Positions 2,543 through 62,672 of a stretch of 64,000 nucleotides of DNA are shown here, piece after piece. Below the pieces are notes generated by a model. The model ran no database searches, was not told the DNA's origin, and saw only the letters and a list, made by a program, of their open reading frames with translations. Positions within the stretch are counted from its first letter, which is position 1; every line of letters starts with the position of its first letter. The position numbers and the translations under genes were made by a program. Source of the DNA: Rugalucina vietnamica (taxonomy: Eukaryota; Mollusca; Bivalvia; Lucinida; Lucinidae); the NCBI GenBank assembly GCA_964017185.1, contig OZ024869.1, forward strand, positions 6,408,501-6,472,500, written 5' to 3'.

Positions 2543-3654
2543 AAGCTCGCCTGCACGAAGTGCATAGAGCTATTGTAGTCACCTCGGTCGTCTCCGTTTA
2601 CAGGTACGTCCGCGTCCGCGTCACACTTTTGGTTAAAGTTTTTTATAAGTTTATATCTCTTGACCATGTTGATGGATCAAGTTGATACTTTGCATGTTGC
2701 TAGATATTGGTCTGAAGTTTTATGCAGTACCATCATGACCCACCCTAGGTGACCTTGAGGTCAAGGTCACGGACTTAGAAATTTTGTGTTTAAGTTTTTG
2801 GTTAAAGTTTTTGTAAGTCTATATCTCTTGACCATATTGATAGATTGAGTTGATACTTTGCATGTTGCTAGATATTGGTCTGAAGTTTTACGCAGTACCA
2901 TCATGACCCACCCTGGATGACCCTGAGGTCAAGGTCACGGACATAGAAATTTTGTGTTTAAGTTTTTGGTTAAAGTTTTTGTAAGTCTATATCTCTTGAC
3001 CATGTTGATGGATTGAGTTGATACTTTGCATGTTGCTAGATATTGGTCTGAAGTTTTATGCAGTACCATCATGACCCACTCTCAGTGACCTTGAGGTCAA
3101 GGTCACAGACTTAGAAATTTTGTGTTTAAGTTTTTGATTTAAGTTTTTGTAAGTCTATATCTCTTGACCATGTTGATTGATCGAGTTGATACTTTGCATG
3201 TTGGTAGATATTGGTCTGAAGTTTTATGCAGTACCATCATGACCTAACCTGGGTGACCTTGAGGTCAAGGTCACAGACTTAGAAATTTTGTGTTAATTTT
3301 TTTGGTTAAAGTCTAAATCTCTTGAACATGTTGATGGATAAAGTTGATACTTGCATGTTGATAGATATTGGTCTCAGGTTTTATGCTGTACATACAACTC
3401 ACCTGGATGACCTTGAGGTCAGGGTCACGCACTTGGAAGTTTTGTGTTTAAGTTTTGGTTAATGTTTTATAAGTCTATATCTCTTGAACATGTAGATTGA
3501 TCAAGTTCATACAATGCATTGGTCTGAAGTTTTATGTTGTACCATCATGACCCACCTGAGTGACCTTGAGGTCAAGGTCATGGGTCATAGATTTTAACAG
3601 ATGTAGTGGCAAAGCACAAGTCAGGCGAGCTACGCTGTCCTGCGACAGCTCTTA
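2543..3654. mobile_element. Composite non-coding element with AGCTCGCCTG ends and internal 168-bp tandem repeats
   Basis: The left end reads TTAAGCTCGCCTGCACGAAG and the right end CAGGCGAGCTACGCTGTCC, giving a 10-bp inverted pair (AGCTCGCCTG/CAGGCGAGCT). Between them lie about 5.6 tandem units. The word CTCTTGACC or its variant recurs at 2657, 2825, 2993, 3161, then about 3319 and 3481, so the period is 168 bp before it shortens. Most units contain the palindrome TGACCTTGAGGTCAAGGTCA. The end design resembles the GCTCACCTGAG elements at 18305 and 31494, but the internal sequence differs. It has no open frame. Confidence 0.7.
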
Positions 3655-7249: not shown

Positions 7250-10200
7250 CTGTAAATGGAAAAAAATATTCAAAATAAAGCATATATTCATCGTAGAGTA
7301 GAGTAGTTAAACCTGGTAATATAGGGCACTATTCCTCACTCTTTAGTCCATCAAGATCTTACTTATTGAAGGTGTTATTTTTGATGCAAGTTTGGTTGAA
7401 TATCATTGTGAATATGAGACAAAACAGAATGTACAACTTTAGAAAAAATAAAAAAATCATCAAAGAACTAAAACAGACTGGAGTATTTGATGATTATTGA
7501 TAGATTATTTTGTAAGTTCTTCGGAAAATCCTATGTTGTGGTTCTGCACACTCATTACAGCTGAAGTGAGTAACTATCTCCAACTAACATAGATTTTTGT
7601 GAAGAAATGAGTAAGATTATCCCCTTAATCATCATCAATCTCTTTTTGTTAAAGAAGTAAAGAAACACCTACCTTCCACAGAATGAGAACAATGACAGCT
7701 ATAAGAATGAGACCAGCTAACACACTGATCAGTATTATCCACCAAGCTACTGGTGTTGGGGGTGGGGACTTAGGCTGAACATCAGTGAACACCTGGAATA
7801 CAAATGAGCCACCTCGTGGGAAAACCAACAATGTGGTTTCTGACCAGGTCTGACACAAATCAGGCTGTACAGTCACAGAAGACAGCTAGAAGCATGAAAT
7901 TTCGTATTTAGGAAGTAGAGGGATTGTTCTATCCGTGTAGCAAAAACAAAGGCGCTGATCAGCTTCGCGGTTACCGCGAAGCTGATCTGTGCCTTTGTTT
8001 TTGCATATGCAAATTGTTGGTTTTCCCATGAGGCGGCTCAAATGTGACAGTGTCAGTTTTACTTTTTTCAGCATATTCATGGTTATACCATTTTGTATGT
8101 TGTCAGCGTTCTAGAAATAATTTGTAATCAGCATTTTTTAAATAATTTGAAAACTTTAAGATTTTCTTTGTTATGAAAAACAGACAAAAATCTGGTTTGA
8201 TCATTATGACAAAATATCATCAGGAAAACATATCCGTGAAATGTATACCCCTTTAAACCCCACTTTTATATAGGAAAACTGGGGTTTGCAGGGGTAAACT
8301 TATTTTCCTTATTTATAATCCAAAACATAGATTGTGGGTGCTCATTAGAACCGCCTCGGCGAGGCGGTTCTAACGTGTACCCACAATCTCTGTTTTGAGA
8401 AAAAATAAGAAAAAAAATCTACTAATCATTTTCATTTTTTACAACTCTGAAACTCTCTGTATATTGCATGGGCAAGTTTTCGTAATATTGACACATATAG
8501 GCCTACATACCTTAGTGGAGTGATCTGTCACATTGGTTAAAAGTCTCTCTTTTGCGCCAAATCTTACATAAGAGTCCGTTCTGAATGTCACTATGCCACC
8601 CTAAAAATAAACAATAAATAGGTGACACCGCAATCTCATCTGGGTCATTCTGTTTGCATACAGGAACTTAATAAAACATACATAAAAATACAAATCACTC
8701 CCCATGCCCCTAAACTCAAAGTTAAGTAGACTCACTCAAATGATGATGATGGACAATCTATTCATCACAAACGGGTTGAAGGTAAGTGTAAAACAAATAA
8801 ATAGAATGTTGAAAATGAAAAACAAATGCATCATGACAATTTCACTGAGAAGTATAACCCAGAATTATTGAAGAACATATTATTACACCAAAACAGGCAC
8901 AGATATGCTTTTATATTTTCTGTTCAGTCCTGAATCTCCTAAATAACCAACTTTCACATTTCAAATGCATTTTATGAAATTTTACAGAACCTAAAAAGAT
9001 ATTGGAAGTATTTGATTATTTGTAGAGCAATTTTGGGTACATCCTAACAAAATCAAATAGGTTTTTATGAAGAACTAACAAAAAATTATCTTTCAATTAC
9101 ATGTATCATCCCTAACAAAATCAAATAGGTTTTTATGAAGAACTAACAAAAAAATATCTTTCAATTACATGTATCATCCCTAACAAAATCAAATAGGTTT
9201 TTATGAAGAACTAACAAAAAATTATCTTTCAATTACATGTATCATCCCTAACAAAATCAAATAGGTTTTTATGAAGAACTAACAAAAAGTATCTTTCAAT
9301 TACATGTATCATCCCTAACAAAATCAAATAGGTTTCATGAAAAACTAACAAAAATTATCTTTCAATTACATGTATCATCCCTAACAAAATCAAATAGGTT
9401 TTTATGAAGAACCAACAAACAATTATCTTTCAATTACATGTAACATCTCTAACAAAATCAAATAGGTTTTTTATGAAGAAATAACAAAAATTATCTTTCA
9501 AGTACATGTATCATCCCCCAACAAAATCAAATAGGTTTTTAACTAACAAAAATTATCTTTCAGTATCATCCCTAACAAAATCAAACAGGTTTTTATGAGG
9601 AACTAAAAAAATTATCTTTCAATTACATGTATCATTCCTAACAAAATCAAATAGGTTTTTATAAAGAACTAACAAAAACTATCTTTCAATTACAAGTATT
9701 ATCCCTAACAAAATCAAATAGGTTTTTTGCAGACGTATAGGTTATAACTTGAATGTTATGCGACAGTCTGCATGCTTAGTTTTTAACCCAATCACGGTTG
9801 ATAACTATGCTGCCTTCTTTAATTGCACGCCGGTGGGTCGGGCGTCAGACTCTGTGATGGCCCCGACTTAAAGCTATTCATTTTAGTTGGTTGGGGCCGG
9901 AGCTTCTTGTCTGTTGCTTGGCCCACCTGGGTCCAACTGATGTTTTTCTTTAGCTCCGGAGTTAGTAAGTTATTTGGCGCCCAGGGATCTCCATCGTCGG
10001 GCAGCTTACTGAATCTGTTAGTCCTGGTTTTTGATTCATCAGGATGTTTATCATGATTTATTTGTTTGTTCTTGATGATTCATTTACTAGTTAGAGATTC
10101 ACCACGAGGACCGAAGAACTAACTAAATGTTAAGAACCACTGCAGAAGCTGAGGGTGAGGTTACGGCCGTGTAAAATCGATTTAAACCCGCCAGTTGTGT

Positions 10201-11460
10201 TACTGATCGTTCCAAGTCGATACTTCTGTGGTGGTTCTTTTTGTTTTATGTCTTGGTGTTTAAAATATTTTTGTGCTGTTGGCGCCTTATGTATGTTTGC
10301 ATATTTTTAGTTAAGGTAACTGAGTGGCCACCTATTGGGAAAATAGCTGCTCATTTGGCTTACGAAATGTTTTCGTGGTATAAGTACCTGATTGTTAGTT
10401 TGGTTTTTTTGGAGTGGGAGTCTTTTTCTGATTGCGCCTTTTCCTGATCTTTGCCTACTTGCACTTTTTTTATGAAGAACTAACAAAAAATTATCTTTCA
10501 ATTACATGTATCATCCCTAACAAAATCAAATAGGTTTTTATGAAGAACTAACAAAAAGTATCTTTCAATTACATGTATCATCCCTAACAAAATCAAATAG
10601 GTTTTTATGAAGCACTAACAAAAAGTATCTTTCAATTACATGTATCATCCCTAACAAAATCAAATAGGTTTTTATGATGAACTAACAAAAATTATCTTTC
10701 AATTACATGTATCATCAAATACCCTTGTCAAACTGATTGTGGAAAGATGCACCTACCATTTTCTTCAACAGGTCCTTATTGATTACGAACTCTAGAGCAA
10801 CAACTGCACTCTCTCGCGGCGAGATATTTCTCAATGAACACTCATATCTTGTGCATACTGTCTTCTCACAATCCTGAAAAAGAGAGAAGTGAGAATAGAA
10901 AGCTCAGGAATTGATATACATGCATAACTCAGACACAGGCAGGAAAATATACACAACAACACACAACACTAGCTCTTGGGCACAACAGAGAAGCTGACAA
11001 AATAGATATATAACCAAGAAGTTTCTATACTTGAAACTCCTTGATATAACAAAGATAGATTTGTCAGTTTTAGTTAAACAGTTAATATCAGATAATGAAC
11101 ATTTGAAAACTACATATGTACATATGAACATAAATACATGCAGTTGAACACATGTACATGTAGCACACTATTTAAAATTGTCTCCAGATCAAGCATTTTT
11201 TATTCAACAACGAAAGAATAAGCACACAAATGGAACTCAATAAATACCAGCCAAATGAAGTCCAACAACTAAATCAATGCAAATGCAATGGATAATATAG
11301 TGCGCGCTATATGCACGGACATCGCTAGCTGTACATGATAATGATGGTTGGTTGGTTATTTTTGGTTGCTTTCGTGTTTTATGCCCCACACTCAATATCA
11401 AAGTTCATATGGAGATGGACTTTTTGGCTATAATTCTTATCCGAACCTAGTCTAGAAAGT

Positions 11461-20697: not shown

Positions 20698-23600
20698 TAA
20701 TACGTAATATAATAATAATAATAATAATAATAATATATCCTAAATGAAATTATATAGGGTTTTATTCTTCATAGCTGTTTCATAAATTCATCTGCCAAGT
20801 CGCATTAGAATTGATATTTGAAACAAAACTCAGTAGAATTAAATCAATGTAGATATCTAATTTAAAGAATATAATCTCTAAGAAATCATGACATGGTGTT
20901 TTCTTTACCTGTCCAATCCCATAGACCGGGTGTTCCAAGTAAGATATCGTTGCCCTGAAAATAAAACAGAAAACATAATCAACAAAAGGACTAATGTTTA
21001 AAACAGAGACATAACAGTATACACATGTGCTGTTGTTTTCCCAATTTCCACTAAAAATGTGAGAAAACCAACAATCTGCATATGCGAAAATAAAGACGCA
21101 CATCAGCTTTGCGGTAACCGCGAAGCTGATCTTACCGCGAAGCTGATCAGCGTCTTTGTTTTCGCTACATGGATAGTACAGTTCCCCTTCTTCTTAACCC
21201 CGAAATTTTAAGCTTCTAGCCTGCTTCTGTGACTGTACAGCCTGATTTGTGTCAGACCTGTTCGGAAACAACATTGTTTGTTTTTCCCACGAGACGGCTC
21301 AAATTTCAACGCTATTATATTCATTACCGATCTTGTAAAATGCGCAGCAGAACCCATACATCCCATTCCATAATTCCATTCATCCTCTCCCTTAGTTTGT
21401 TTCTCTTTGTTGATCAGTGCAGGAATCTTCACAATATTTTCCTTCTTGAAGTCTAGAGGCACTATATAACACAGCCCATTCATGAATATAATATTGTCCT
21501 TTGCTTCAAAATAGCGGTTGTACCAACGGCTAGCGCATACCTGAAAAGGACAAAAAAAATAGATTATTGGTCAAATTAAATGGTATCATACATTTAGCTA
21601 TTTCACTATTTATTTTTTAAAACGGTTCTAAAAGCGGATTGTAAAACGGTAAGACTGCATACAAACACCAAATATTGTATTTACTAACGTATATTTACAG
21701 TCATAGCAGACTTTTGAAGCCGTGATACAACACAGAAAACGCCAAGAAGGAGATGCTCTAAAGTATTCCTTGTAAAGTTCACAGTGGAGAGATGATCTAA
21801 CGTATTCCTTGTAAAGTTCACAGTGGAGAGATGATCTAAAGTATTCCTTGTAAAGTTCATAGTGGAGAGATGATCTAAAGTATTCCTTGTAAAGTTCACA
21901 GTCGAGAGATGATCTAAAGTATTCCTTGTAAAGTTCACAGTGGAGAGAGATGATCTAAAGTATTCCTGGTAAAGTTCACAGTGGAGAGATGATCTAAAGT
22001 ATTCTTTATCATCCATAGTGCAGGTTATATTTTCCTTTTGGTCCTTTGAGATCAGCGAGGATATTCTGAGAAATCAGAAATTTACTATTGGTTAAGTTCA
22101 TTTTTAACCAATTTTTAATATATTTGGTCTCATTTAGATAATACTGGTCTTTGTATCGACAACCCTGTTGAAATTTGCAGAATTTCAGTTATTCTCTTTG
22201 GCTCCATGTTGCCAAATCTACAGGGTCACTGACGAGACTTTAATAGTCGAAACCGCGGTATGGCCCATCCCCTTTCTCATTAATATGTTCACTGCTCTTA
22301 AAGGATCTCAGTTTTAATTTTATTTGTAAAGTTCACAATGGAGAGATGATCTAAAGTATTCCTTGTTAAGTTCACAGTGGAGAGATGATCTAAAGTATTT
22401 GAGTGATTAATGTGGATTATAGTAAAGTTTCAGAAAATCTTCGGGATATCAGCACACATTAAGGTAATGATTCGTAATATTTGACGTATTTTCTATTTTA
22501 ATACCAATAACAGGGACAGGTTCATGTTGAACGTGTTGGAGGAGGGGGTAAGTTTATCAAGGAGGTAAGAGTTCTTAATTTTACCCATAAACACTACATA
22601 AAATGAAATATCTTGTCCTAAAGGGGACGAGATTTAAGCGACCCCATGAACCTCAACCAACTCCATCATTGATATTGCTATGAATGCATCAAACTATTTT
22701 TTCTCCAAAACATGATATCTAAGGGGTCACTCACCACAACTCCTTGGTTTTCATTAACGTCAATTGATGCACCTAGCCACTGTTTGTCTCTACCGTGCTC
22801 AAATGTTGGTAAAGTGCCGTTAAAATTGACGGTGTCTGTTCCTTCGTTATCTGAAAATATAGAGAACTTACATAACTCGGTTGCTCTGGATACAGTTTAT
22901 CTTAACATACATGTTAGCATTAAACCATTTATACTTTTGTAATTTTATTTTGTATTTCTGGAGATGTTATCCTTTATATGGATCATGCCTTGCTCATTGA
23001 GCGACGGTCGCAAATAGAAGTGATAACAGCGGAATGACAAATGAGCCGCACCATGAGAAAACCAACAATCTGCATATGCGAAAACAAAGACGCAGATCAG
23101 CTTCGCGGTAACCGCGAAGCTGATCAGCGCCTTTGTTTTCGCTACTCGGATAGTACAGTTCCTCTTCTACTTAAATCCGAAATTTCAAGCTTCTAGCCAT
23201 CTTCTGTGACTGTACAGGCCGGTTTGTGTCAGACCTGTTCGGAAACCATATTGTTGGTTTTCCCACGAGGCGGCTCAAATTACTCTGGTAAAAAGGTTGA
23301 GACAAACTTAAGATGATTCTAGTAGGTATGTTTGGTAAATGAATATTTGAGCCGCCTCGTGGGAAAACCAACAATGTGGTTTCCGAACAGGTCCGACACA
23401 AACCGACCTGTACAGCTACAGAAGCAGACTAGAAGCTTGAAATTTTGGAGTTAAGTAGAGGGGATTGTACTTTCCGAGTAGCGAAAACAAAGGAGCTGAT
23501 CAGCTTCGCGGTTACCGCGAAGCTGATCTGCGCCTTTGTTTTCGCCTATGCAGATTGTTGGTTTTCCCATGTGGCGGCTCATTTAACGAATTAACAAGCA

Positions 23601-50526: not shown

Positions 50527-53158
50527 ATGCTTTTCTCATATGATGAAAATTCTTCAGTTAGATTCAAAAACATTAAACGATTTGAAACTGAACTTAAATG
50601 GATAAAATTACTGCAAACACCCTTTCCACTGGGATTTAACGACAACATTTACCATGAAGGCAATATTTCCAAAACGCCCGATTTTGATGTACTTACACTT
50701 TCGGACTCTCGTAAACGTAAATCTAGATCTCATGGTATACGGAAAAATGGTAATGACAAACGTAAACGGTGCGCTGCATTGAAATTGAACATTTCTCTTA
50801 ATGATTTAGCTGTTAAACTAAGGATTCACGGTCGACATCCAATGCTGTCGTATCTTAGTTCTCTTACCTATTGCTGCATTACGTTCCTTGGACACAGGGG
50901 CTAATAGATTTTACGATAGAAATCATCAAATGTATGACGCTGCACTGTTAACAAGATGTTATACTCAGCATGCTCTTCGTCCATTTATCGATTCCGAATC
51001 TAATCACATTAGAAGTTTCATTAAAATTCCTTTCATCAATAAAGGAATTGACTTCATTGATTTACCAAGCATATTCCAGGATAAATCAGTGATACAATCT
51101 ATACCTACCTACTTCCAAAATTCAGAACCTCCTATTATTTGTTACAAATATAACAAACCAATCAGAAATACAATTTTTAATTTCAATAAACTTGTTTCTG
51201 ATCTTGATATCCATGCTAATACTCCTAAGTCTTGAGATTGTAAAGATTCAAAATATGTTTATCAACCCGCTGGACATATTGTTACTGGAAATTTAAAAAT
51301 AATTTCGGATTCTAGAATTCGCAAAATTGTTTCTAAAGGTCCGAAATATAGATTCCCTTCCTACATTAATTTCGACAAATGTAGAGAGGAGATTTCATCT
51401 GCATTAAATGATTTCGGTAATCGATGGTGTAAACGAGAGAGTGTTGAGGATAATGCTCTTAAAGAATGGAAAAGAAGTATCTTCACTATCGTGGATAAAC
51501 GTATTAAGTTTTATTCACAAAATACTAATCTTTTACCTCCTAAACCCAAATCGTCATTTAGGCATTTGAAGCAGGGTATCCAAGAATTTCATAGAAAGTA
51601 TGTCTTGGTTCCGGCAGATAAAGCCGCAAACAATGTTGTTGTCGTTTGTAGGCTTCACTACGTTAACACCTTAGAACAGGAGCTTGATGGTACCAAGGCT
51701 TATCTGGAGACAGATACTGATGAGGTATCTGTAGTTAATGCCCACTTAAACGATTTACCTGTTAAGTTTTCTGTTTGTGTCAATGAAGGCCAAGACAAAC
51801 TTCCTACGATGTATTGGTTACCTAAGCTTCACAAAAGACCATACAAAGCTAGATTTATTGCAAATTCTAGCTCTTGTACTACCACTGAACTTTCTAAATT
51901 ATTAACTTCCTGTCTTACTGCTATCAAATCTCATGTTATAAGATACTGTGAGACAGTGTATGAAACTTCAAATAAAAATTGGTTCTGGTCAATTAAAAAT
52001 TCTGGTGAGGTGCTCAGTAAATTGAAGTGTAGAGGGTTCCGTGCGACAAGCTTGTCCACATATGATTTTTCTACTCTGTATACAACATTACCACATAATC
52101 TAATAAAAGAAAAACTTCTGGATTTGATAGAGTGGACCTTCAAAAGGGCATTAAAAAACTATGGTTCACTTTATTTGGCATGTAATGACAGAAAGGCTTT
52201 TTTCACTTCCTCTGACCAAAGTCGGTATACACTTTGGTCATGTCAGAATGTATGCGACGCCTTATCCTATCTCCTTGATAATATTTATATTAGATTTGGG
52301 ACCAAGTTATACAGACAAATTGTTGGAATTCCGATGGGTACAAATTGCGCACCTCTCGTAGCTGATTTATTTTTATACTGCTACGAAAGAGATTTCATGG
52401 ATTCTCTTAACCATGATAATCAAGCTAATGTTATCGAGGCTTTTAATTCCACATCTAGGTACCTCGATGACCTTTTGAACATTGACAACCCTTATTTTGA
52501 AGGTATGGTCAATCAAATTTATCCACCTGAACTTCAGTTGAACAAAGCCAATATCACAGATACTGAAGCCCCCTTTTTAGATCTACATCTTTCTGTTGCA
52601 AATAGATTTGTTTCTTCTAAAATTTATGATAAGCGCGATGACTTTGATTTTGATATAGTAAATTTTCCTTTTTTGGATGGTGACGTTCCTCGTCGTGCTT
52701 CTTATGGTGTATACATTTCGCAACTTATAAGGTTTGCTAGAGTCTGCAATCATGTTACAGACTTCAACGCTCGAAATAAATGTTTAACGGCAAAACTTCT
52801 CCAACAGGGCTATCGGTATCATAAACTTCGAAAAACATTTTCTAAATTTTATCGTAGACACTATGAATTGATTTCCAAATATAATGTTGGGTTAAAGACG
52901 CTTTTAAGTGAGGGCCTTTCGGAACCTGAATTTTATGGTGACTTGGTTTACAAATTTAAGAAACTTAAAGGAATTAATGATTTTTCTTTTCAGTTCAGAA
53001 AAATCATAACACGTTACAGACGTGTAGGTTATAACTTGAATGTTATGCGACAGTCTGCATGCTTAGTTTTTAACCCAATCATGGTTGATAACTATGCTGC
53101 CTTCTTTAATTGCACGCCGGTGGGTCGGGCGTCAGACTCTATGATGGCCCCGACATAA
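50527..53158 (+). pseudogene. Penelope-like reverse transcriptase, one frameshift and one stop
   Basis: It replicates an RNA copy of its element. Frame pieces: 50527-about 50865 (ELKWIKLLQTPFPLGFNDNI, then a basic RKRKSRSHGIRKNG), a 1-nt shift, 50888-51232 (LRSLDTGANRFYDRNHQ), a TGA at 51233-51235 in place of what is probably a Cys codon, then open to 53158. RT landmarks in the last part: VLVPADKAANNVVVV, MYWLPKLHKRPYKARFI, STYDFSTLYTTLP, VGIPMGTNCAPLVADLF and the active-site box SRYLDDLLN. The KLHK and GxPMGTxxAP motifs point to Penelope-like rather than LINE RT. No GIY-YIG nuclease is seen C-terminal to the RT. The WIxLLxTxxPxGxND segment before it resembles sequence that follows GIY-YIG domains. 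Confidence 0.8.
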
Positions 53159-56872: not shown

Positions 56873-57482
56873 GTGCACTATGGTGTACTGGAAGGGTCAA
56901 AATGACCGATCGGTCCATGCCTATTTCAAAATAGACATGCACCCGCAAATATAGGGGTGCACCCGCATATTTAGAGGTTCACCCCTATTTTAAGATAGAG
57001 GTTAACCCCTAAAATGCAGGTACATGCCTATTATAGGGGTGCATGCCTATTTTAGGGGTTAACCTCTACTTTACGGGTGCACCTCTAAAAATACGGGTGC
57101 ACCCCTAAAATAGGCATGCACCGCTATTTAGGGGTTAACCTCTATTTATGGGTGCACCCGTATATTTGCAGGTTAAAGCCTAAATATAGGGGTTCACCCG
57201 CAATTTTAAAATAGTGGTTAACCTCTATTTTTGCAGGTTCACCCCTATTTAGGGGTTCACCTCTATTTAGGCATGGACCCCTAAAAATAGGGGTTAACCC
57301 CTATTTTTAAATTGCGGGTTAACCCCTATATTTAGACATGCACCTGCAAAAATGCGGGTGCACCCCTAAAATGGAGGTTAACCCCTAAATAGCGGTGCAT
57401 GCCTATTTTAGGCTTGCACCCGTATTTTTAGGGGTTAACCTCTAAAATGGAGGTGAACCTCTAAAATAGGCATGCATCCCTA

Positions 57483-57890
57483 AAATAGGGTTGTACCTGC
57501 ATTTTTAGAGGTTAACCTCTAAAATAGGCATGCACCTCTAAAATAGGCATGCACCGCTAAACTGCGGGTTAACCCCTAAAATGCAGGTTAACCCGTATCC
57601 GAAAATAGGGGTGAACCTCTAAATATGCGGGTGCACCCCTATATTTGCGGGTGCATGCCTATTTCAAAATAGGCATGGACCGATCGGTTAACCACTTCGG
57701 TAATTTTGACCCTTCCAGTACACCATAGGGGTGCACCTGCATTTTTAGAGGTTAACCTCTAAAATAGGCACGCACCTCTAAAATAGGCATGCACCGTTAA
57801 ATTGTGGGTTAACCCCTAAAATGCAGGTTAACCCGTATCTGAAAATAGGGGTGAACCTCTAAATATGCGGGTGCACCCCTATATTTGCGG
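57483..57890. repeat. Tandem duplication of the terminal part of the mosaic element
   Basis: The stretch 57483-57729, ending at an inner copy of the terminal repeat (CTTCCAGTACACCATA), is repeated from 57723 to 57890 and on from 58658 to 58755 with few differences. The duplication therefore predates the insertion at 57891. Confidence 0.8.
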
Positions 57891-58657
57891 CCCAGGGGGG
57901 GTACTCAGAAATTTTCTGTATACATAGGCGAGGCTGACTTTTTTGGGGTCAAAATTTTGAATTTCCATATTTTTTTGGGTTTTCAGAAAAACTAGTTATT
58001 TTTTAGGGTAGTGAGCTTTTTATGGATATTTTTTTGGGGTCATGCCTTTTCTGAATTATTTTTTGGGGTCATCTATAATTCTAAGTAATTTTTTGGGTTT
58101 TGCACATTTCTTGGGGATTCTCTTTATTTCTATAAAGATAAAGAGTGACTTACACTTATGTCTTACAAGGCCTTAAGATTCAATTTTGTTTGCGACCATG
58201 CCTTATGACTGGTCTCGGTGAAATTTTGGAAGCTTGATCATGATGATGTTTGGATTGCAAATCAAATGGAATCAAAACCATCATAAGACTTACACTTTGA
58301 GAATAAATAAAATCTTTAAATTTTATCCAACTTGGTATTTACTTCCTAGTTCCTACATATACTAACTGTATTGTGACGTGTTCTGTTGGTTGGTTGATTT
58401 GGGATTTAACGTCCCACCAACAGCTTAGATCATATGGATGTGATAAAATTTCATCAATAGGCATAAAAAAGATGAATACATGTAATTTTTGGGGTAAGCT
58501 AAAAGTTCAAGTATTTTTTGGGGTATTCCTGATAGGACTGGTATTTTGGGGGGTGGTCAGCAAATCTCAGTAATTTTTTGGGTTTGGGGGTAGAAGCTGG
58601 GGCCTTGCCTATGTATCCACAAAAAATGAGAGTACCCCCCCCCCCCCCCCCCCTGGG
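57891..58657. mobile_element. hAT-like non-autonomous transposon with 8-bp target duplication
   Basis: The ends are CCCAGGGGGGGTACTC and GAGTAC, a long C run, then CTGGG. ATTTGCGG is duplicated exactly at 57883-57890 and 58658-58665. Eight-bp duplications and CAGGG-type ends fit the hAT superfamily. The interior repeats ATTTTTTGGGG-type words (for example near 58007, 58061, 58088, 58511 and 58571) and has no transposase frame. It is inserted in the mosaic element. Confidence 0.85.
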
Positions 58658-58760
58658 ATTTGCGGGTGCATGCCTATTTCAAAATAGGCATGGACCGATT
58701 GGTTAACTGATCGGTTAACCACCTCGGTCATTTTGACCCTTCCAGTACACCATAGTGCAC

Positions 58761-59573: not shown

Positions 59574-62500
59574 CTATGTTGATTCTGAACGCAGGCCAGA
59601 GGCCTCTATGTTCAGCTCCTCATCAGACTGTACTGTGGCAAGTCTCCTATTTCCAGTCCCCGGGTTTGCCACATATGGGTTGTATTCTATGTCTGGGTTG
59701 TACTTCATCGGATGGTCAGCCCACAGCTTGTCAAGACGATTTTCGAAGGCGTTAACACTTGGTGCACAAACCACTTTCTCCGTTAAAGAATTCCACACAT
59801 TTACCACTCTTGAAGTGAAGAAATTTTTACGTATTTCTAGTCGACATCTGTGTTTTTTCAGTTTGAATGAATGACCACGCGTCCGAGCTTGATCCGAGAC
59901 ATTAAATAATTCAGCTGTTACCCGTTTATCGTAGATTCCATGTAAAATCTTATAAACTTCAATCATATCCCCCCTTAGCCTACGGTATTTCAGTGTTGGT
60001 AATTTCAACTTCTTTAATCGTTCTTCATATGTCAAATTTTTGAATCCTGGTATTACTTTTGTTGATCTGCGTTGTACATTTTCAATCATATCTATATGTT
60101 TCTTCAAATAAGGACTCCAGACGGATTGGGCGTACTCCAATATAGGGCGTACGAGGGCTCTAAACAACAGTACAAACATTTCTTCATCCAAGAAAGTAAA
60201 TGATTGTCTAATTATACCCATTACACTATTAGCTTTATTCACTTTAGTGACAATATGTGTTTCAAATGTTAAATGCTCATCAATATAAACTCCAATGTCC
60301 TTTTCACAGCTGCTGACCTCCAGTTTGACTATAGAACCATCTGATTTTCGCATGAAATATTCAGGCTTATCAATGTTACATTTCCAGGGTAAACAAATCC
60401 TTATAACTATACATTTATCTGGATGAAATAATAGCAACCAGTCATCTGACCAATCTTGCAAGATAAATAAATCGTCCTGTACGACAATTACATCAGAGTC
60501 TGACTGTATTTCTTTGGACAATTTAGTGTCGTCGGCGTAAAGGGCTATTTCTGACATCACTGAATCCGGCAAGTCATTTATATATATCACAAACAGAACG
60601 GGGCCCAATACTGAACCCTGAGGAATACCGCTAGTAACCTTCGCCCATTCTGAAAAATGTCCGTTTACTTGTACTCGCTGCCTTCTATCATATAAAAAGT
60701 TCTCCACCCAATTACACATTTTTTCACTCATTCCATAAGCCCGTAGTTTAACGATGAGACGACGATGGGGGACTTTATCAAACGCTTTCATAAAATCCAT
60801 ATACACCGCATCTATAGTGCCCCCATCATCTAATATTTTTGTCCATTTATCCAGTACTGTCAATAGTTGCAAACTTGTAGATCGGCCCCCGATAAAACCA
60901 AACTGTTTATCACTAAACAAGTTATTACTATTCATTTGATCAACAATCTTAGTTCTAATCAGTTTTTCAAATATTTTACTTACAACACTGGTAAGACTGA
61001 CTGGGCGATAGTTTGATGCTAGCTTTTTGTCTCCCTTTTTAAACAATGCAGTTATCTGTCCCTTTTTCCATTCATCTGGTACAATACCTGATTCAAAAGA
61101 CTTGTTGAAAATCATAGTTAAAGGTTCACAAATTACATCTGCCAGTTCATATATCAACTTTGGGTGTAAACCATCAGGACCCTGTGACTTTGATGTATTT
61201 ATACTAGTCAATAACTTTCTAACTGTCCCTATTTCAAAATAATCATCAGATGATTTAGTTGTGTAATTTCTTTGTTTCAAATTGGGCAATTCACCACTTG
61301 GTTCTTTAGTGAAAACACTACTAAAAAAGTCTGACAATACCTCGGCTTTATCCTCATCACTTTCAGCAATAAAAGTTGAATCTTGTCTCTTAGTATGCAA
61401 TTCCGATATACTTGACGTTGTTTTGCGTTTCGAGTTTACATATTTCCAGAAATTCTTAGGGTTAGAATTTGATGTCTGAGCAATTTCTTTTTCACGTGCG
61501 CGTTTTTCTTTCCTTACAAGCCACTTCACTTTGTTTCTTGCTTTTGCGTACAGTTTATAAGAATTTTCATCACGAGATTCAATGAACCTTGTCCATGTTC
61601 TGTGTTTTCGCTTAATGGCTTCAACTGTATTTTTACACAAAGGTACTGTTCCTTTACGCGGGAATGGTCGTGAACGTGGGATATATTTCTCCTTGGCCGC
61701 GGTCACACGCTCCATAAAATTATTTAACATGCTATTCACATCACCTATGCCTAGTTCATCTTTCCAGTTTATCTTCAGCTCTTCTCTCAATGACTCATAA
61801 TCACCTTTATAGTAATTAAAATGTGTACTATAGTTGTTTGTATGACTGCAGTAACAATTAAACTGAAAAGTTAGTACTTTGTGATCACTGGCTCCCAATG
61901 GGGATAAATATTCCAGGTCTACAACCATATCCTCTTCATTTGTCATAATTAGATCTAACACAGAAGGTTGTTGATTTATTCTGAACCGTGTGAAGTCTTG
62001 TACATGCTGGTACCAAAAACAGTCCCTAAGACATTCAAGAAATAGTTCACTCTCCTCTTTTTCAGCGTTACAGTTTTCCCACTTAATGTCAGGATAATTT
62101 AAATCCCCTGCCACAACCACGTGACTAAACTGTCTATTTTCAGCTACATGTTTTAACAAGTTTCTCAAATGCACCTCGTTTACAGCAGAATTTGATGGAC
62201 TTTTATAAATACACCCACAGAGAAGACAGTCTGTACCTTTAAGGTTGATTTTTACCCATGTACTCTCTTCAAAATTTGTGTCAAATTTTACCTCAACTGC
62301 TTTCAAAGTCTCTTTAATATAAATAACTGTTCCTCTGGACATATTATCCGGAAATGATTCAGGAAACATTTCATATCCTTGTAAAGCAATCTCTGCCCTG
62401 GTTAGTTGAAACCTAAAGTTTTTTGGTAGCACTTCAGTTAACATAATAATATCAGGCTCCCTGCCTTTACTTTTAATGTCAGCACAAAATTCGTCCCACT

Positions 62501-62672
62501 TATTTGATAAACTGTCAACATTTGTATAATAACAAAACAAATTTGAAACGTCAACTGACGAACGAGTATTTACATTACTATTTACATTGTTCTTTGATCC
62601 CTCTAATCTGCCTCCACCCCCTCCTCGAGTGTGTCTTCTCTCACCCGAAGCTTGACTGTCCGCCGATTCCAC
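59574..62672 (-). CDS. CR1-like LINE ORF2: endonuclease and reverse transcriptase, 1032 aa
   Basis: It nicks target DNA and reverse-transcribes the element RNA in place. AP-type endonuclease: FCYYTNVDSLSNKWDEF (47-63), IIMLTEV with Glu80, VVAGDLNYPDIKWEN (186-200) and SDHKVL (262-267), covering the metal-binding Asn, Glu, GDxN and SDH residues. RT, roughly 490-760: ALFKKGDKKLASNYRPVSL, DKQFGFIGGRSTSLQLL, AVYMDFMKAFDKVPHRRL, GIPQGSVLGPVLFVIYINDL and LYADDTKL with the two catalytic Asp. C-terminal CR1-type part: ALVRPILEYAQSVWSPYLKK, LRGDMIEVYKILHGIYDK, VVNVWNSLTEKVV. No internal stop or frameshift over the full length expected for the family. The N-terminus overlaps the ORF1 end by 70 nt. Confidence 0.92.
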   Translation of the reverse strand: MESADSQASGERRHTRGGGGGRLEGSKNNVNSNVNTRSSVDVSNLFCYYTNVDSLSNKWDEFCADIKSKGREPDIIMLTEVLPKNFRFQLTRAEIALQGYEMFPESFPDNMSRGTVIYIKETLKAVEVKFDTNFEESTWVKINLKGTDCLLCGCIYKSPSNSAVNEVHLRNLLKHVAENRQFSHVVVAGDLNYPDIKWENCNAEKEESELFLECLRDCFWYQHVQDFTRFRINQQPSVLDLIMTNEEDMVVDLEYLSPLGASDHKVLTFQFNCYCSHTNNYSTHFNYYKGDYESLREELKINWKDELGIGDVNSMLNNFMERVTAAKEKYIPRSRPFPRKGTVPLCKNTVEAIKRKHRTWTRFIESRDENSYKLYAKARNKVKWLVRKEKRAREKEIAQTSNSNPKNFWKYVNSKRKTTSSISELHTKRQDSTFIAESDEDKAEVLSDFFSSVFTKEPSGELPNLKQRNYTTKSSDDYFEIGTVRKLLTSINTSKSQGPDGLHPKLIYELADVICEPLTMIFNKSFESGIVPDEWKKGQITALFKKGDKKLASNYRPVSLTSVVSKIFEKLIRTKIVDQMNSNNLFSDKQFGFIGGRSTSLQLLTVLDKWTKILDDGGTIDAVYMDFMKAFDKVPHRRLIVKLRAYGMSEKMCNWVENFLYDRRQRVQVNGHFSEWAKVTSGIPQGSVLGPVLFVIYINDLPDSVMSEIALYADDTKLSKEIQSDSDVIVVQDDLFILQDWSDDWLLLFHPDKCIVIRICLPWKCNIDKPEYFMRKSDGSIVKLEVSSCEKDIGVYIDEHLTFETHIVTKVNKANSVMGIIRQSFTFLDEEMFVLLFRALVRPILEYAQSVWSPYLKKHIDMIENVQRRSTKVIPGFKNLTYEERLKKLKLPTLKYRRLRGDMIEVYKILHGIYDKRVTAELFNVSDQARTRGHSFKLKKHRCRLEIRKNFFTSRVVNVWNSLTEKVVCAPSVNAFENRLDKLWADHPMKYNPDIEYNPYVANPGTGNRRLATVQSDEELNIEASGLRSEST

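What the first reader, a model, noticed from the sequence alone, without database searches (positions are those of the whole stretch)
56873..58760. Mosaic array of short palindromes built from a small alphabet of half-sites
Inside 37-bp perfect inverted ends, dozens of units of about 20 bp each join a left arm (TAGGGGT, TAGAGGT, TGCGGGT, TGCAGGT, TACGGGT, TAGGCAT) to a right arm from the complementary set through a 2-bp core. Left and right arms vary largely independently, so some units are perfect palindromes (GGGGTTAACCCC) and others are hybrids (GGGGTTAACCTC, GCGGGTGCACCCC). Ordinary satellite drift does not predict reuse of the same few arms in new pairings. Recombination or template switching between units, or selection as paired protein-binding half-sites, could. 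I know of no named family with this design.
Basis: partly seen in the sequence, partly recalled or inferred. Interest (0 to 1): 0.9.

Follow-up and report, generated by a model that had tools for sequence, protein, structure and literature searches.

The report
Foldback transposon built of palindromes
This is one copy of a mobile DNA family whose whole length folds into a single long hairpin made of about forty short near-palindromes drawn from a few shared pieces; the type of element is known, but the palindrome-array build of its ends is an unusual variant.

Summary
The array is real. It is an 849-bp non-autonomous DNA transposon with TATGG...CCATA ends and a 6-bp target duplication (GTGCAC here). 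Of 39 further loci fetched, 25 have both ends, 21 of them with a 6-bp duplication (18 exact). Copies keep the same unit order apart from deletions, one insertion and one rearranged copy, so the mosaic is mostly inherited. The half-site alphabet is still real within one arm (9 distinct words against 14.6 +/- 1.1 in column shuffles). Cores pair palindromically; outer arms do not. A few copies show how pairings change: a templated jump joined at a shared core, some homology-flanked deletions, and an arm-to-arm conversion tract. The window copy also has a tandem-duplicated 3' end split by an unrelated 767-bp element. Ends and duplication fit the IS3EU/GingerRoot superfamily, but no transposase was linked. 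It works like a foldback element; the palindromic-unit array is a new variant. Half-site function is untested.

The parts
56873..56878 (.). 5' target-site duplication GTGCAC
   Evidence: exact 6-bp duplications at 18 of 25 loci with both ends found (15 different insertions)
56879..57727 (+). Body of the foldback element (849 bp), TATGG...CCATA termini, one long hairpin, no ORF of 120 aa or more listed
56879..57257 (+). Left hairpin arm: TIR plus about 17 dyad units
   Evidence: 336 of 380 ungapped columns identical to the right arm; 351 of 382 pairs in the consensus
57258..57727 (-). Right hairpin arm: mirror-image array with about 4 extra units (a 76-bp gap in the alignment)
57728..57890 (+). 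Start of a tandem duplicate of the 3' terminal ~240 bp (57485-57650 against 57725-57890, 96%); junction at shared CTAT/ATAG
   Evidence: family D7; sequence
57891..58657 (.). Unrelated 767-bp element inserted in the duplicate (CCCAGGGG...CCCTGGG ends, 8-bp target duplication ATTTGCGG at 57883-57890 and 58658-58665)
   Evidence: (I21)
58666..58754 (+). Rest of the duplicated 3' end, with the outermost TIR
   Evidence: D9, D10, I13
58755..58760 (.). 3' target-site duplication GTGCAC

Best explanation
A non-autonomous foldback DNA transposon (MITE) family, moved by a transposase supplied in trans, probably of the IS3EU/GingerRoot type. SHOWN: TATGG...CCATA termini, 6-bp target duplications, hundreds of TIR copies, and the whole element as one hairpin. 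SHOWN: each arm is an array of ~19-20-bp dyad units (arm-core-arm) drawn mostly from about six half-site words; the order is shared by the copies. SHOWN in single events: units are lost, inserted and re-paired by jumps joined inside shared unit words, and sequence passes between hairpin arms. INFERRED: the array grew by repeated slippage or template switching at the shared cores (GGTTAACC, GGTGCACC), which spreads a few words and makes hybrids, and was doubled into a hairpin by a fold-back (inverted) duplication before the copies spread. INFERRED, weakly: the dyads are extra binding sites for the transposase, as reported for the repeats in Galileo ends.
For: Copies: the own-genome search returned 136 matches (both strands of the palindromic copies) from 40 of 380 candidates scored. 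TIR pattern: 312+315 genome hits against 2+1 for the reversed control. TSDs: exact 6 bp at 18 of 25 loci, one mismatch at 3, none at 4; 15 different insertions. Empty site with a single CTAGTT for the host repeat that carries several copies: one hit, one mismatch. Hairpin. Same order. Doubling older than spread: arms differ at 31 of 382 sites in the consensus while 24 of 26 aligned copies are 96.7-99.6% identical to it. Alphabet. Core pairing. Jump, deletions, conversion. IS3EU ends 'always' TA..TA and TSD usually 6 bp: passages of PMC10045372.
Against: No autonomous copy or linked transposase was found. A 6-bp duplication is not unique to IS3EU: the same paper gives 6 bp for Polinton. Of the 21 deletions of 12 bp or more, 16 show 5 bp or less of homology. 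Sharing of arms between neighbouring units is not significant. The conversion tract in two loci may be one event; many other arm-swapped letters are ancestral states in old copies. Arm identity is the same in the older and younger consensus (342/369 against 351/382), so there is no sign of rapid ongoing homogenisation.
Confidence: 0.8

Rival explanations
1. The half-sites are kept by selection as paired binding sites for a dimeric protein (transposase or host factor): the conserved core fixes the dimer geometry and the outer words tune affinity, so arms mix freely.
For: Cores are palindromic far above chance while outer arms are not; unit spacing is regular at 16 bp plus mostly 2-4 bp; the 455-bp relative keeps 4-5 units at one end. 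Galileo's internal repeats are reported to hold extra transposase sites (PMC4079207 passage).
Against: Copies lose single units and accumulate substitutions within the array. The 455-bp relative spread almost wholly as a passenger of a larger repeat (17 of 20 loci share flanks), so its retained units prove nothing. No binding data.
Confidence: 0.2
2. An ordinary decayed satellite captured in a MITE: one ancestral palindrome was amplified and then drifted; the repeated words are shared ancestry and CpG decay (TGCGGG to TGCAGG, TACGGG to TATGGG).
For: Same order in the copies and drift-like divergence; several word pairs differ by a CpG transition (sequence).
Against: Words differing by two adjacent letters (TAG/TGC, GG/CA) recur in many units, and distinct words are far fewer than when columns are shuffled (the shuffle does not model shared ancestry of whole units). 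A jump that makes a new hybrid unit is seen directly.
Confidence: 0.2
3. A hairpin-RNA source: read through from a host promoter, the 850-bp stem feeds Dicer or ADAR, and the word diversity keeps the arms pairing in register.
For: One continuous stem of ~400 bp per arm; arm identity near 92% in both old and young consensus.
Against: No transcript or small-RNA data here; four older single copies have decayed to 80-83% arm pairing (L035, L037, L038, L059); a hairpin is expected of any foldback element.
Confidence: 0.1
4. Assembly artefact.
For: Palindromic arrays are hard to assemble (general knowledge).
Against: Dozens of colinear copies at separate places, 18 with their own exact target duplications.
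Confidence: 0.01

Closest known systems
Foldback (FB/FB4) elements of Drosophila and foldback-like families (Tm1 of root-knot nematodes, Tetris, Galileo)
   Same: Long inverted ends, in Tm1, Tetris and Galileo filled with repeats; modules duplicated and deleted between copies in FB4 (passages of PMC2955051, PMC3169594, PMC4079207).
   Different: There the repeats are described as tandem repeats (about 14 bp in Tm1, about 220 bp in Tetris); here each unit is itself a dyad with exchangeable half-sites, the array fills the element to the apex, and the TSD is 6 bp (Tm1: mostly 9 bp).
IS3EU/GingerRoot superfamily
   Same: TA..TA termini and 6-bp TSD (PMC10045372 passage).
   Different: No transposase could be linked; the array was not compared with any published IS3EU family.
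Tandem-repeat-bearing MITEs and Helentrons of bivalves (Donax trunculus MITEs, pearl, C. gigas elements)
   Same: Repeat arrays carried and dispersed by a non-autonomous element in molluscs (PMC8268682 passages; the Donax and pearl papers seen only in its reference list).
   Different: As recalled, those carry direct repeats at one place inside the element; here the repeats are the inverted ends.
Palindromic MITEs of nematodes and sea-urchin TU elements
   Same: Near-complete palindromes, or inverted ends made of short repeats (recalled).
   Different: Recalled only, not compared here.

Membership tests
Non-autonomous TIR DNA transposon (MITE) | Precise terminal inverted repeats in many dispersed copies | tested here: met
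   TATGG...CCATA; 627 TIR hits against 3 control hits
Non-autonomous TIR DNA transposon (MITE) | Target-site duplication of fixed length | tested here: met
   6 bp exact at 18 of 25 loci, 3 more with one mismatch, 4 without; empty site with one TSD copy
Non-autonomous TIR DNA transposon (MITE) | No coding capacity | tested here: met
   No ORF of 120 aa or more listed in 56879-57727
Foldback element | Long inverted repeats able to fold into one hairpin | tested here: met
Foldback element | Inverted ends made of short repeats, variable between copies | tested here: met
   units; unit-scale deletions and a 70-bp unit insertion among copies
IS3EU/GingerRoot | TA..TA termini | tested here: met
   criterion from PMC10045372
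IS3EU/GingerRoot | TSD usually 6 bp | tested here: met
   (not unique: Polinton also 6 bp)
IS3EU/GingerRoot | DDE transposase of the IS3EU lineage in an element with the same ends | tested here: inconclusive
   rve+OTU proteins exist in the genome but no matching TIR was found in the sequence fetched around three of them
Satellite DNA | Long tandem array outside a mobile element | tested here: not met
   In the window GGTTAACC occurs only inside the element (16 of 16); the other unit words outside it are scattered. Copies lie between TIRs where both ends were found (25 of 39 loci). Arrays without TIRs elsewhere in the genome were not searched for separately.

The most novel reading that the evidence does not exclude
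The element is a self-recombining word array. Dyad units share universal cores (GGTTAACC/GGTGCACC) that act as crossover points, so replication or transposition-coupled template switching shuffles half-sites into new pairings while keeping every unit a near-palindrome and both arms of the hairpin in register. Palindromic cores with unlike outer arms may be the state selected: local hairpins are weakened and the single long hairpin, or a protein dimer bridging unlike half-sites, is favoured.
Probability: 0.15. Interest if true: 0.6.

Novelty: new variant of a known kind. Interest (0 to 1): 0.38.

Why it matters
It gives a clear, copy-rich case of how repeat arrays arise inside transposon ends: each unit has two readable half-sites, so slippage, template jumps and arm-to-arm conversion can be scored junction by junction. 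If the half-sites bind a transposase, the family would be a natural affinity series for dimer sites. As a genome feature it is otherwise an ordinary dispersed repeat.

Tried and rejected
Transib/CACTA ends (CACTATGG read as a terminus, motif recalled) were rejected: the flanks do not repeat there, and other copies show the terminus is TATGG with a 6-bp TSD. A hybrid unit first credited to the L036 deletion was dropped, because the same 16-mer occurs in 12 loci. A domino-like sharing of one arm between neighbouring units looked striking by eye and is not significant (p 0.11 and 0.44). The autonomous element: two long TIR-to-TIR intervals (L068, L069) hold ORFs that look like non-LTR retrotransposons (by eye); the IS481-type profile search returned 68 matches, none over the family's cut-off and most in long ORFs of the size of LTR elements (my reading); rve+OTU elements lack these TIRs in the sequence fetched. 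Viral-contig pattern scans and the phage search found nothing. Unit strings were sought in the paper library; the 20 of 46 papers listed were unrelated by title and abstract. Other bivalve genomes and small-RNA data are not within reach of the tools.

Full report
WHAT IS THERE. The region holds an array of dyad units of 16 bp, each a 6-bp arm, a 4-bp core and a 6-bp arm, separated by AT-rich spacers of mostly 2-4 bp, at most 9. The 37-bp perfect inverted ends exist (I13). Comparison with other copies splits them into a 6-bp target-site duplication, GTGCAC, and 31 bp of terminal inverted repeat starting TATGG. The body is 56879-57727. From 57728 the 3' terminal ~240 bp are repeated in tandem (57485-57650 against 57725-57890, 96%, D7), with the joint in the shared letters CTAT/ATAG. 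This duplicate is split by an unrelated 767-bp element, 57891-58657, with its own 8-bp duplication ATTTGCGG. The outermost TIR at 58724-58754 therefore belongs to the duplicate.

THE HAIRPIN. Inverted pairs I1 and I3 share one centre near 57257; I2 lies about 39 bp off it because of the extra units in the right arm. Folded as single-stranded DNA, 56878-57728 forms one stem: -360.7 kcal/mol against -107.0 +/- 5.0 for 20 shuffles. The two arms match in 336 of 380 ungapped columns; in the family consensus in 351 of 382 pairs. The right arm has about four extra units.

THE FAMILY. The window lies in an unnamed assembly of 1.09 Gb in 47 contigs. Searching it with 56873-57740 gave 136 matches, many of them the second strand of the same palindromic copy, from the 40 candidates scored of 380; the best copies match at 95% over the full length. 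The TIR pattern with up to 2 mismatches has 312+315 hits against 2+1 for the reversed control. In the 39 loci, both ends were found in 25. Of these, 18 have an exact 6-bp duplication, 3 have one mismatch and 4 have none. The 18 represent 15 different insertions, because several loci sit in one host repeat. An empty site of that host repeat, with a single CTAGTT and one mismatch in the 27-base pattern, occurs once in the genome. Of the 26 rows aligned (25 loci and the window copy), 24 are 96.7-99.6% identical to the majority consensus of 874 bp, and two are at 91.5% and 89.5%. The window copy is at 98.7%.

THE ORDER IS SHARED. Of 51 rows locally aligned to the consensus, four were too short to use; the other 47 align at 88-99.6% identity over their aligned parts, several of them truncated copies. 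A local alignment is colinear by construction, so the point is the high identity over long stretches. Exceptions seen are unit deletions, the 70-bp insertion in seven loci, and L040, where the right half appears again inside the left arm. Even L059, at 87.8% identity, keeps the order apart from substitutions, loss of single units and an inserted element. So most of the mosaic is older than the present copies.

THE ALPHABET IS REAL. Within one arm of the consensus, 34 half-sites use 9 words; shuffling letters within columns gives 14.6 +/- 1.1, and 0 of 10,000 shuffles reach 9. The right arm (40 half-sites, 10 words against 18.3 +/- 1.3) and the window copy (74, 14 against 25.2 +/- 1.6) agree. 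The shuffle does not model shared ancestry of units, so it shows that letters travel together as words, not how. Identical left and right words are not in excess: 0 of 17 units in the left arm (expected 2.6; 2.8% of shuffles as low) and 2 of 20 in the right (expected 2.4; 56% as low). But core halves match strongly: 12 of 17 (p 0.02) and 17 of 20 (p 0.0004). Left/right words share information in the left arm (p 0.024) but not clearly in the right (p 0.097). With 17-20 units the power is low.

HOW NEW PAIRINGS ARISE. (1) Seven loci (L023, L025, L027, L029, L034, L039, L071) carry 70 extra bp near the 3' end. Six have the same flanks and the seventh, L071, the same 6-bp duplication, so I take them as one insertion in a host repeat. 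The extra piece is a copy of left-arm consensus positions ~135-230, entered at the shared GGTTAACC and left at CGG. The entry creates the unit GATCGGTTAACCCCTA, which is absent from the consensus and, among the loci held, found only in these seven. I count this as one event. (2) Of 31 gap events, 21 are 12 bp or longer. Five of these 21 have 10 bp or more of homology at the ends, against 0.6% of random deletions of 10-140 bp inside the array (p about 1e-7); one of the five (814-825) lies just outside the stretch used for the random figure. The other 16 have 5 bp or less. (3) In L042 and L070, at different places and with different flanks, the right arm carries the left-arm letter at nine of nine consecutive arm-differing sites, consensus 567-595. 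At three of the nine (584, 590, 595) this is also the older copies' letter; at six it is not. This is a short conversion tract, perhaps one event inherited by both. Overall, 154 of 210 changes at arm-differing sites go to the other arm's letter, but many of these are ancestral states in six older copies, so this total must not be read as conversion. (4) The window's own 3' duplication is a further jump between short shared letters.

MECHANISM. The best account is a foldback MITE whose array grew by homology-guided slippage or template switching at unit cores, and which was doubled into a hairpin by an inverted duplication before it spread. The steps seen in single events are those above. The original growth and the doubling are inferred. 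What the units do, if anything, is unknown. Extra transposase sites, as discussed for Galileo and Tetris in PMC4079207 (passages), are the most plausible role; this was not tested.

MEMBERSHIP. TA..TA termini with usually 6-bp duplications are stated for IS3EU in PMC10045372 (passages), and both are met here; the same paper gives 6 bp for Polinton too. A linked transposase is missing. Proteins with rve and OTU domains exist in the genome, in large repeats with long tandem arrays, but no TIR like ours was found in the sequence examined around three of them. I therefore call it IS3EU-like, not IS3EU. It works like, and has the defining architecture of, a foldback element. The dyad-unit array is what differs from the foldback families I could read about. 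No paper with this design was seen in nine library searches. These cover only openly licensed papers and were read as listings, with passages of four foldback or bivalve papers and one IS481EU/IS3EU paper.

A RELATIVE. A 455-bp element shares the first 159 bp (TIR plus 4-5 units, 89-96% identical in the 11 copies compared) and ends in a TIR, with an unrelated middle. In 17 of the 20 loci it lies in the same flanking sequence, so it spread as a passenger of a larger repeat.

VERDICT.

Noticed in passing
57891-58657: 767-bp element with CCCAGGGG...CCCTGGG ends and an 8-bp target duplication ATTTGCGG, nested in the duplicated 3' end; the duplication length suggests a hAT-type MITE (recalled, not tested).
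   Followed up: partly
L048, L051 and others; G000:C1:8336197 and similar places: 455-bp relative sharing the first 159 bp; 17 of 20 fetched loci have the same flanks, so one insertion was multiplied inside a larger repeat.
   Followed up: partly
L077:681-3446 (-), L078:121-2819 (-), L079, L080: Proteins with an integrase core and an OTU protease domain in repeats of over 8 kb that also hold long tandem arrays; about eight loci in the genome stand out by identity.
   Followed up: partly
L040 (G000:C9:34403641-34405085): Rearranged copy: the right half of the element appears a second time inside the left arm, joined at the shared word TAGGCATGCAC.
   Followed up: no
window 59574-62672 (-) and 51491-53158 (+): Long ORFs with reverse-transcriptase-like sequence near the element (read by eye, no family search run).
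   Followed up: no
window 2627-3580, 9043-9727, 10467-10716, 21750-22004: Tandem arrays with periods of 168, 68, 67 and 39 bp.
   Followed up: no
L059: Old copy interrupted by a ~111-bp palindromic element with several GACGTCA motifs.
   Followed up: no
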